From a virus: a stretch of 35,548 nucleotides of DNA. Position 1 is the first letter of the stretch. Each line of letters opens with the position of its first letter. The notes beneath the pieces are model-generated. The model saw only the letters and a program-made list of their open reading frames with translations, searched no databases and was not told where the DNA came from. The translations under genes and the position numbers were made by a program. The DNA lies in IMG/VR virus record IMGVR_UViG_3300035698_017582, positions 1 to 35,548 of that record; one strand, written 5' to 3'. Shown here in pieces: positions 18,633-26,800 of the stretch.

Positions 18633-20144
18633 CTACGCCACTAACACCAGCCTGGCAGCTGGTTCGGCCTGCGTCACGTGAGTTTGAATAACCTCAATCG
18701 CTCCCAACCAGTCTCCAGTTTCGACCGCTGACGCCACTGCGTCGAACGGCGTTCTGTAGTTGGGCAGGATCGTTTCGGCACTCAGCACGCAGTTTGAAGC
18801 TAGTGCGTTGAGCAGCTCGGCCCTTTCCTCGTCACTTTTCCGATTATACCATTCAGGAGCGCGTTCGAGAAGTTTGAAGGTTGCGGCGACGTCGTTCGGA
18901 TTCCTCGCACCCGCGGCGGTCACCTTCCCGATCTCCCTCTCTACGAATGTCCCCCTCTCCGCCAACTCGTGGTCGACGGATGCCCACTGCTGCGGTTCGA
19001 TGATGTGCTCGAGCTTCTCGAGGTAGGTGTCTCTCCGAAGCTCTTCGATGCGACGCTTGTCGGCCTTGAGCTGGATGAGCTGGGCTCGTCTCTCTCGGTC
19101 TCGTTGCTTCTCTGTCGCGGCGGCCTCACTGAGTATCCGTGTGACGGCCGGCCGTGGGATGTGGACGCCTTCGACGACAACCCGCAGGCGATCGGAGAGT
19201 ACCTCCTGCCGGTGGAAGGGTTGCGCGCACTTGCCCTTCGCTCGCGTGCAATGGTAGTAGACGTACTGCTTCCCGTGCCGGTTCGTGATCAGGCTCGCGG
19301 TGATCATGCACCCGCAGTAGGAGCACGTCAGGAGACCGCGGAATGGGAACTTGTGCTTCCGCATCCGTGGGCCGCTGCGTCCGTGCATCTTCTCCTGTAC
19401 GGCATCCCAGGTGTCGCGGCTCACCAGCGGCTCGTGCGTGCCTTCGTAGACCTCACCCTTCCATGGGAGGCCGCCGTAGTAGATGCGATGCTGTAACAGG
19501 TTGTGGATCGCCCCGACGTACATCGTGGCCCCGTACCTCGACCGCAGGCCGGCGGCACGCGCCCACGCGGCGACTTCCTTGATGCTCATCTGCGTGTGGG
19601 CGTACAGGTCGAAGAGACTGGTGATGAGGGCGCCGCTGATCGGATCGGGCTCGATGCCCTTCCCGGCGTTGACGTATCCGGTGGGCGCGTAGGTGGGCCA
19701 GAGGCCCTTCTGCGCCTTGGTCCGCAGGCCCAGAGAGACGCGCTGGGAGAGCTGTTGGCTGTAGTGCCGGGCGAAGACGGCGTGCATTCCACCGAGGAGC
19801 TGGTTGTTGGTATCCGAAACCTCGCCCTCGGTCATCGAGATCAGCGTCGCGCCGAGGTCCTCGGTCAGCGTGGCGAAGTCGGTCATGTTCCGGGCGAGGC
19901 GGTCGAGCTTGTAGACGAGGACGGCGCTGACGTCCGATCGTTTCCGCAGCGCGTCGCACATCCGCGCGAACTCCGGGCGCTTGCCGGAGGTGAACGCGGA
20001 CTCGCTTTCCACGAACGACTCGACGATCTGCAGCTGGTGCCCGGCGGCATAGTCGGCGAGGACACTGTCCTGCGCCTCCAGGCTGTAGCCGTGCCGGGCC
20101 TGGTCATCGGTCGAGACGCGCATGTAGCGGAGCACCTTACGCAT
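18633..20144 (-). CDS. int: Large serine recombinase (putative integrase)
   Basis: 503 residues. The catalytic N-terminal domain shows YMRVSTDDQ with Ser 11 and YKLDRLARN with Arg 82 and Arg 85. A recombinase domain follows (APTGYVNAGKGIEPDP, ..HRIYYGGLPWKGE), then a zinc ribbon with Cys 274, 277, 279, 299 and 306, and a coiled-coil segment (about 345-395). This is the architecture of phage integrases such as phiC31. It would integrate and, with a directionality factor, excise the phage. GGAGGG precedes ATG 20144. No clear attachment site is visible in the short gaps on either side. Confidence 0.93.
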   Translation of the reverse strand: MRKVLRYMRVSTDDQARHGYSLEAQDSVLADYAAGHQLQIVESFVESESAFTSGKRPEFARMCDALRKRSDVSAVLVYKLDRLARNMTDFATLTEDLGATLISMTEGEVSDTNNQLLGGMHAVFARHYSQQLSQRVSLGLRTKAQKGLWPTYAPTGYVNAGKGIEPDPISGALITSLFDLYAHTQMSIKEVAAWARAAGLRSRYGATMYVGAIHNLLQHRIYYGGLPWKGEVYEGTHEPLVSRDTWDAVQEKMHGRSGPRMRKHKFPFRGLLTCSYCGCMITASLITNRHGKQYVYYHCTRAKGKCAQPFHRQEVLSDRLRVVVEGVHIPRPAVTRILSEAAATEKQRDRERRAQLIQLKADKRRIEELRRDTYLEKLEHIIEPQQWASVDHELAERGTFVEREIGKVTAAGARNPNDVAATFKLLERAPEWYNRKSDEERAELLNALASNCVLSAETILPNYRTPFDAVASAVETGDWLGAIEVIQTHVTQAEPAARLVLVA

Positions 20145-25924: not shown

Positions 25925-26128
25925 CTACGAGAGGCCCAGCGCGGCGTGCGCCAGGCTCGGGTTGCTCGCCTCAACAAGCGACGCGCGCTCGCAAGCGCAG
26001 TGCTCGGCGAACGCGCGGTCATCGTCGGGATCGCTGCGGTGAGCGCGATCCCGAAGCTCGTTGAGTTCCTCAGTGGTCAGATAGCGGATGTGGCCTGCGT
26101 CCAGGCGCATGAGTGACGCGCCCGGCAT
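25925..26128 (-). CDS. Small acidic protein, 67 residues, start uncertain
   Basis: The frame encodes MPGASLMRLDAGHIRYLTTEELNELRDRAHRSDPDDD... and ends ASNPSLAHAALGLS. The helix LTTEELNELRDRAHR and the acidic patch look natural. No ribosome site precedes either candidate ATG (26128 or 26110), and the frame stays coding-like upstream for about 25 residues (YAGVHPEGFTLYTPAS) without a start codon. It lies directly before the ATPase. Function unknown. Confidence 0.55.
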   Translation of the reverse strand: MPGASLMRLDAGHIRYLTTEELNELRDRAHRSDPDDDRAFAEHCACERASLVEASNPSLAHAALGLS

Positions 26129-26220
26129 CGAGGCAGGTGTGTAGAGCGTGAAGCCCTCGGGATGGACGCCCGCGTACTGCGGGTCTTGATTCGGACAGGA
26201 CGTGTGTGCTATTCTGTCCC

Positions 26221-26295
26221 TGCTGCTTGTTTCTTTGGGCCCTCTGGCAAGGGCCTTTACGTCGCCCCCGGGCTTCACCGCCCGGGGGCACTTCG
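26221..26295 (+). ncRNA. Double-hairpin element, copy A
   Basis: On plus, hairpin 1 is GGCCCT-ctggca-AGGGCC and hairpin 2 is a perfect 10-bp stem GCCCCCGGGC / GCCCGGGGGC with a 6-base loop. A plausible plus-strand promoter ends a few bases before it. The left edge, GCTGCTTGTTTC, is one base from the 12-bp motif. It aligns with copy B over its whole length. Confidence 0.5.
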
Positions 26296-26348
26296 TTGAT
26301 GGCTCGCCCCGCCTGAAAGGAATGGATCCCCCTCCGAGGCAAGATGAG

Positions 26349-26360
26349 GCTACTTGTCTG
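26349..26360 (-). promoter_or_regulatory. 12-bp AGTAGC motif between the hairpin elements
   Basis: CAGACAAGTAGC (minus strand), in non-coding DNA between copies A and B and next to a small GCCGG/CCGGC hairpin. Confidence 0.5.
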
Positions 26361-26433
26361 CCGGGACTGCCGGCACAGGTGTATATGCACGCTGGCTGTT
26401 GATCGCGGGAAGAGCTGCCCTGTGGGTTGTGGC

Positions 26434-26505
26434 TGCTGCCTGCTCTTTGGGCCCTCTGGCAAGGGTCCTGACGTTGTCCCCGGTCCTTAGGGACTGGGGG
26501 CGGCG
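26434..26505 (+). ncRNA. Double-hairpin element, copy B
   Basis: Hairpin 1 keeps the same loop and stem as copy A with one change that gives a G-U pair on plus (C-A mismatch on minus). Hairpin 2 keeps the outer CCCC/GGGG pairs but has a different inner stem (GTCC/GGAC, with a G-U pair on plus only). The conserved fold with changed bases suggests RNA, more likely read from plus. It overlaps the end of the XRE gene by 19 bases. Confidence 0.45.
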
Positions 26506-26750
26506 GTCTCCATCTCTTCCTCTGCATCGTGAACCTCCTCTTGTGGATCATCTAGCACGAGATACGGCGCAAGGAGATCACACATGCACATCATTTCGCT
26601 GTACTTGGGCTCCGTCTGTCCGGTCTCCCAATTGGCGATGGTGTTCACGTGACGCGATACTCCCTTCTCCTCGAGTAGGAGCTGAAGTTGTTCGCGAGTG
26701 AGCCCTTTGCGCTCTCGTGCCTCTTTGATCCGACGGCCGATGTCTGTCAT
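26487..26750 (-). CDS. XRE-family repressor-like regulator, 87 residues
   Basis: It starts MTDIGRRIKEARERKGLTRE at ATG 26750. The HTH covers residues about 4-58 (IKEARERKGLTREQLQLLLE..GVSRHVNTIANWETGQTEP), with WETGQ typical of XRE repressors. The tail is acidic (DDPQEEVHDAEEEMET). There is no peptidase domain, so it is not a LexA-type CI. ATG 26750 is only about three bases from the predicted transcript start, so the message is probably leaderless. It is the best candidate for the lysogeny switch, acting on the two palindromes in its own promoter. Confidence 0.88.
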   Translation of the reverse strand: MTDIGRRIKEARERKGLTREQLQLLLEEKGVSRHVNTIANWETGQTEPKYSEMMCMCDLLAPYLVLDDPQEEVHDAEEEMETAAPSP

Positions 26751-26759
26751 GCTGGAGAC

Positions 26760-26800
26760 ACCATAGCACAATTCGTTGTGTGTGTCAACAATCCGTTGTG
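26760..26800 (-). promoter_or_regulatory. XRE gene promoter with two palindromic operators
   Basis: Minus strand: TTGACA (26788-26783), 17 bases, TATGGT (26765-26760). Two 14-bp palindromes cover it: CACAATTCGTTGTG (26767-26780, in the spacer) and AACAATCCGTTGTG (26787-26800, over and upstream of the -35). They share ACAAT-pyrimidine-CGTTGTG, with centres 20 bp apart on the same helix face, as expected for an autoregulating XRE dimer pair. Confidence 0.85.

What the first reader, a model, noticed from the sequence alone, without database searches (positions are those of the whole stretch)
26186..26505. Two diverged double-hairpin elements beside the repressor
Copy A (26221-26295) and copy B (26434-26505) align throughout: the same first hairpin and loop, and a second hairpin whose inner stem differs in sequence but not in pairing. 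The differing positions make G-U pairs only if the RNA is read from plus, opposite to all genes. A TTGATT-18-TATTCT pair with an extended -10 lies just before copy A, and both copies have TTGAT 47-48 bases before the hairpin. This suggests a small plus-strand RNA, possibly antisense to the early leader; put-like antitermination RNA (phage HK022) on minus is an alternative.
Basis: partly seen in the sequence, partly recalled or inferred. Interest (0 to 1): 0.62.

Follow-up and report, generated by a model that had tools for sequence, protein, structure and literature searches.

The report
Phage antisense RNA beside a regulator
A group of uncultivated phages carries a small two-hairpin RNA, read backwards across the junction between a regulator gene and the next gene, which probably silences that next gene; one phage here holds a second, promoterless copy.

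Summary
Copies A and B are 79% identical over 58 nt, and both fold far better than shuffled sequence on the plus strand. I found the same element in two related phages, IMGVR_3300008516_000235 (L004) and IMGVR_3300017989_000148 (L044). Across the four copies 71 of 72 cells pair. Eight of 18 pairs show changes on both sides, a count no shuffle of 500 reached. There are 7 G·U and no A·C pairs, so the RNA is plus-strand. The first hairpin's stem is rewritten in L044, yet its loop CUGGCA is invariant.

Copy A, L004 and L044 each have a sigma-70 promoter 20-21 nt before hairpin 1, among the 3-7 best-scoring sites of their stretch. Copy B has none. No Rfam family matches.

The element lies opposite the junction of a small DNA-binding regulator (HTH, or Arc-like in L044) and an overlapping downstream gene. 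Best explanation: an ~75-80 nt cis-antisense RNA that blocks expression of that gene. This is the layout of phage P22 arc-sar-ant and plasmid pMV158 copG-RNAII-repB, but I found no homology to them. Transcription, target and host are untested. Four Clostridium-like phages carry a simpler one-hairpin counterpart.

The parts
26186..26191 (+). -35 element TTGATT of copy A (TTGAAT in L004, TTGACA in L044)
   Evidence: sequence; whole promoter 4th of 71,024 window positions; conserved in two relatives.
26207..26215 (+). Extended -10 TGC-TATTCT of copy A; predicted transcription start about 26222-26223
   Evidence: L004 TGCTATGCT, L044 TATTCT, all ending 20-21 nt before hairpin 1. Start site is inferred.
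26223..26236 (+). Single-stranded 5' tail of about 14 nt
   Evidence: Fold; length inferred from the -10 position.
26237..26256 (+). Copy A hairpin 1: 7 bp, loop CUGGCA
   Evidence: Loop invariant in four copies while the stem is rewritten in L044.
26264..26289 (+). Copy A hairpin 2: 10 bp, G+C-rich; probable terminator with a weak U-rich tail (CACUUCGUU)
   Evidence: termination is inferred.
26399..26404 (+). TTGATC before copy B; no usable -10, so probably no promoter
   Evidence: best site scores 3.6, P about 0.28.
26449..26468 (+). Copy B hairpin 1, same loop CUGGCA
26476..26501 (+). Copy B hairpin 2: 11 bp plus outer extension; loop UUAG holds the complement of the regulator's stop codon
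26487..26750 (-). Small HTH regulator (87 aa), upstream gene of the junction; stop codon inside copy B hairpin 2
   Evidence: HTH_31, HTH_3; phrog_3 transcriptional repressor.
25925..26527 (-). ORF2, the proposed target: SD GAGGAGG (26534-26540) then ATG 26527; open through both copies into the conserved QDPxYAGxHPxGFxLY region
   Evidence: In L004 the only ATG/GTG/TTG of the 121-codon frame is the one before the element.
26296..26433 (.). 138-bp spacer between the copies, resembling neither flank
   Evidence: left flank of A matches L004 (p 0.001) and that of B does not; right flank of B matches L004 (p 0.005) and that of A does not.

Best explanation
Copy A is the gene of a small antisense RNA of about 75-80 nt: a 14-nt tail, hairpin 1 with loop CUGGCA, linker ACGUYG, and G+C-rich hairpin 2 as terminator. 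It is made from its own sigma-70 promoter, opposite to the phage genes. It is complementary to the mRNA at the junction of a small DNA-binding regulator and the overlapping downstream gene ORF2, from about codon 4-5 of ORF2 onward. Pairing, probably begun at the loops (both carry the YUNR U-turn motif), would keep ribosomes from starting ORF2 or expose the mRNA to cleavage. ORF2 would then be under double control, by the regulator protein and by the RNA. Copy B is a second copy that keeps the structure but has no promoter. Shown by computation: conserved structure, strand, promoter and location. Inferred: transcription, termination at hairpin 2, ORF2 translation, target and mechanism.
For: Covariation: 8 of 18 pairs with two-sided changes, 98.6% of cells paired, 0/500 shuffles for both; sliding the pairing by one base drops pairing to 64%. 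Strand: 7 G·U, 0 A·C. Promoter in three phages among the 3-7 best-scoring positions of their stretch, 20-21 nt before hairpin 1. Predicted RNAs of equal stability: -39.4, -39.1, -39.1 kcal/mol. Same site in three phages: SD and ATG of ORF2 lie 20, 20 and 23 nt beyond hairpin 2, and the regulator's stop codon lies in its loop. The regulator family differs, HTH in two and Arc-like in L044, while the RNA stays. Window against L004: apart from the recombinase gene this is the strongest DNA match, 77.6% over 134 nt, E 6e-18. YUNR loops are typical of antisense RNAs that start by loop contact (PMC4485353; PMC6562991).
Against: No expression data. Three phages only, four copies. The U-rich tail after hairpin 2 is weak. 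A cis-antisense RNA does not need an invariant loop, since its target changes with it; U-turn geometry explains that only in part. The first 40 codons of ORF2 do not look coding by base composition, so the exact start of the target gene is open. In the window the promoter copy (A) is not the copy next to the ORF2 start (B).
Confidence: 0.62

Rival explanations
1. A trans-acting small RNA: same transcript, but the invariant loop CUGGCA binds another phage or host RNA, or a protein, rather than ORF2 mRNA.
For: The loop is unchanged while the stem of hairpin 1 is largely replaced in L044. Copies A and B keep the same loop although they read in different frames of ORF2.
Against: Position at the regulator-ORF2 junction is constant in three phages, which a trans-acting RNA would not need. 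The loop carries YUNR, which explains much of the constraint.
Confidence: 0.15
2. An OOP-like antisense RNA whose target is the 3' end of the upstream regulator mRNA (as lambda OOP on cII), lowering the regulator rather than ORF2.
For: Hairpin 2 covers the stop codon and the last codons of the regulator in all three phages. OOP is a known case of this geometry.
Against: The overlap with the regulator is short and mostly the terminator hairpin. The regulator family is swapped while the RNA is kept, so the constant partner is ORF2.
Confidence: 0.12
3. A minus-strand structure: terminator or put-like antitermination signal in the regulator mRNA.
For: Copy A also folds well on minus (z -4.4). Hairpin 2 lies right at the regulator stop.
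Against: G·U asymmetry; poor fold of B on minus; no U run after it on minus; a promoter pointing the other way.
Confidence: 0.06
4. No RNA function: conservation comes from protein coding on minus (ORF2) and the promoter match is chance.
For: ORF2 is open through the element in all three phages and reads Cys-Gln at the loop in B, L004 and L044; the only size differences in that stretch are of 3 nt.
Against: Compensatory changes in stems and promoter ranks are not explained. Copy A keeps the loop in another frame. Codon composition there is not coding-like.
Confidence: 0.03

Closest known systems
sar RNA of Salmonella phage P22 (arc-sar-ant)
   Same: Small antisense RNA from its own promoter at the junction of a small repressor gene and the next gene; in L044 the upstream protein matches the Arc-like repressor family. 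[quoted passage not shown]
   Different: No sequence relation found. ORF2 is not a recognisable antirepressor. Here the RNA lies just inside the overlapping downstream frame instead of in an intergenic gap.
RNAII of plasmid pMV158 (copG-RNAII-repB)
   Same: Short antisense RNA between a small repressor gene and the gene it controls, with a 17-nt tail, a G+C-rich hairpin, and double control with the repressor (PMC4485353).
   Different: RNAII is 48 nt with one hairpin, lacks U-turn loops and acts just upstream of repB; here there are two hairpins and YUNR loops. The one-hairpin RNAs of the Clostridium-like phages resemble RNAII more closely.
OOP RNA of phage lambda
   Same: Small RNA opposite to the early operon, just after a regulator gene (layout from general knowledge).
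   Different: OOP targets the 3' end of cII; no homology found here.
put RNAs of phage HK022
   Same: Two hairpins near a phage repressor.
   Different: put acts in cis on the strand of the early genes (general knowledge); here the evidence favours the opposite strand.

Membership tests
P22 sar-type antisense RNA (by function, not homology) | RNA encoded opposite to the junction of a small repressor gene and its downstream gene | tested here: met
   Three phages.
P22 sar-type antisense RNA (by function, not homology) | Own promoter and compact hairpin structure | tested here: met
   transcription itself not shown.
P22 sar-type antisense RNA (by function, not homology) | Downstream gene encodes an antirepressor | tested here: inconclusive
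   ORF2 has no Pfam or PHROGs match.
P22 sar-type antisense RNA (by function, not homology) | Blocks translation of the downstream gene | not testable with these tools
   Needs expression experiments.
pMV158 RNAII | 48-nt RNA: 17-nt tail, one terminator hairpin, poly-U | tested here: not met
   Two hairpins and a weak U tail.
Known Rfam family | Match at or above gathering score | tested here: not met
   None in the whole window; best weak match in the element 13.7 bits against a cut-off of 34.7.
HK022 put RNA | Conserved structure in the early (minus) transcript | tested here: not met
   7 G·U to 0 A·C in favour of plus; minus fold of B poor.
lambda OOP | Antisense to the 3' end of the upstream regulator | tested here: inconclusive
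   Hairpin 2 covers the stop codon; effect not testable.

The most novel reading that the evidence does not exclude
A new family of phage antisense RNAs that travels as a module: promoter, two U-turn hairpins and the start of a target gene, fixed across phages while the paired regulator is swapped between HTH and Arc-like types. The window phage has gained a second copy that acts as an extra binding site or decoy for the RNA from copy A.
Probability: 0.25. Interest if true: 0.65.

Novelty: new member of a known kind. Interest (0 to 1): 0.5.

Why it matters
Antisense RNAs at phage regulator junctions are known from a few model systems such as P22 sar and lambda OOP. This is a covariation-supported, promoter-bearing case in uncultivated phages with no Rfam family. 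It suggests that the layout 'small repressor, antisense RNA, controlled gene' has arisen or spread more widely. The invariant loop over a replaced stem is a clear, testable statement about what the RNA must do. The simpler one-hairpin version in Clostridium-like phages gives an independent group to test.

Tried and rejected
Rfam, gathering and permissive: nothing. DNA similarity in annotated phages and plasmids: no real match. Genome-wide pattern scan of 85k species: 25 hits, about the number I expect by chance, and by eye none has the second hairpin together with a promoter. A pattern for hairpin 1 plus linker in IMG/VR: of nine hits only L004 and L044 are real. The ATPase gene gave no new relative with the element. 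The gene next to the element in L004 and L044 gave one more record, where the expected site falls off the contig end and the model found nothing convincing. Host: recombinase searches in about 1,200 genomes of three phyla plus narrower groups gave only 32-34% matches in the Chloroflexota draw; host undecided. The similarity of hairpin 1 to that of two Clostridium-like phages could be chance by hit count alone; it is kept as a parallel because of position, promoter and strand, not claimed as homology. The Cys-rich plus-strand ORF between the copies has no relative.

Full report
Observation. The two elements are real. Direct-repeat search gives 58 nt at 79% identity, 212 nt apart. Plus-strand folding is far below shuffled sequence for both (z -4.0 and -3.7), while the minus strand of copy B folds only weakly. 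The 17-nt core occurs twice in the window, against 0.14 expected even with 3 mismatches allowed.

Relatives. A pattern search of IMG/VR for the core with free purine/pyrimidine flanks gave three contigs. One, L004 (IMGVR_UViG_3300008516_000235), is a true relative of the window phage: a single copy beside an HTH gene, followed by a gene homologous to the window's QDPxYAGxHPxGFxLY gene. DNA comparison of the window with that genome shows the element region (26141-26269, 77.6%, E 6e-18) as the strongest match apart from the serine recombinase gene. The recombinase, about 70% identical in protein, led to a further phage, L044 (IMGVR_UViG_3300017989_000148), again with one copy in the corresponding place.

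Structure. In L044 the stem of hairpin 1 is GUCCGCU/AGCGGAC instead of GGGCCCU/AGGGYCY, but the loop CUGGCA is the same. Hairpin 2 differs in its inner stem in all four copies but always pairs and always spans 26 nt. With N padding for a 3-nt insertion in L044, the count of structure pairs gave 98.6% paired cells and 8 pairs with changes on both sides; no shuffle of 500 reached either value, and shifted pairings collapse. Non-Watson-Crick pairs are 7 G·U and no A·C (sign test p 0.016), which is what an RNA from the plus strand predicts and neither a DNA cruciform nor a minus-strand RNA does. A covariance model finds A, B, L004 and L044 at 71-87 bits (the model was built from them). Two Clostridium-like phages come next at 23-24 bits, though these had been found by sequence beforehand.

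Promoter. A sigma-70 score computed over both strands puts the site before copy A 4th of 71,024 positions in the window, the L004 site 7th of 39,928 and the L044 site 3rd of 39,074. All end 20-21 nt before hairpin 1. Copy B has TTGATC but no -10 and scores at chance. The simple consensus scan missed copy A because it matches only 8 of 12 bases.

Surroundings. All three phages have the same junction on the other strand. A small DNA-binding protein gene (HTH in the window and L004; Arc-like in L044, phrog_3180) ends inside the loop of hairpin 2. A strong Shine-Dalgarno sequence and ATG for an overlapping frame, ORF2, lie 20-23 nt beyond hairpin 2. ORF2 is open through the element into the downstream gene in all three. 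In L004 it has no other ATG/GTG/TTG start, and in L044 none between codons 20 and 94. The only size differences within the ORF2 start and element are multiples of 3. Against this, base composition of the first 40 codons is not coding-like, so the start of ORF2 is inferred.

The double copy. The left flank of A matches the left flank of the single copy in L004, and the right flank of B matches its right flank. The spacer sides match nothing. The window thus has a chimeric doubling of one ancestral element, possibly by recombination between two related phages. Only A keeps a promoter.

Mechanism. The best reading is a cis-antisense RNA that silences ORF2 from just inside its start. Both loops carry the YUNR motif (CUGG in hairpin 1; UUCA, CUUA or CUCA in hairpin 2), which promotes rapid loop contact in antisense systems (PMC4485353; PMC6562991). 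The layout is that of P22 arc-sar-ant (PMC7968456; PMC2629481) and of pMV158 copG-RNAII-repB (PMC4485353). I claim likeness of working, not membership: no homology was found and the downstream gene is unidentified. The main rival is a trans-acting RNA, because a cis-antisense RNA does not by itself need an invariant loop.

A parallel. Four Clostridium-like phages (L002, L003, L008, L011) carry, opposite to their early genes, a promoter 21-23 nt before an 8-bp hairpin with a 6-nt loop and a U run (7 bp in L003). This is very like pMV158 RNAII. Two of them share CCCUCUGGCAAGGG with the window. Given the number of pattern hits this could be chance, so common descent is left open.

Limits.

Noticed in passing
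L003:5280-5230 (-), L002:9030-9080 (+), L008:2100-2050 (-), L011:1420-1370 (-): Clostridium-like phages have a probable tiny RNA opposite to their early genes: an extended -10 (three of four), about 22 nt, a 7-8 bp hairpin with a 6-nt loop and a U run, much like plasmid pMV158 RNAII.
   Followed up: partly
26344-26490 (+): A 48-codon plus-strand ORF between the two copies encodes a Cys-rich peptide (MRLLVCRDCRHRCICTLAVDRGKSCPVGCGCC...). No relative in Pfam or phage records; may be chance.
   Followed up: partly
26750-26788 (-): The HTH regulator has a good promoter (TTGACA-17-TATGGT) whose -10 ends only 9 nt before the ATG, so its mRNA may be nearly leaderless.
   Followed up: no
18633-20144 (-): The large serine recombinase is about 70% identical in protein to those of L004, L043 and L044, while most other genes of these phages are much more diverged or absent.
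   Followed up: partly
L044:3080-3250 (+): In L044 the gene before the element encodes an Arc-like ribbon-helix-helix protein instead of an HTH protein, so the regulator has been swapped while the RNA stayed.
   Followed up: yes
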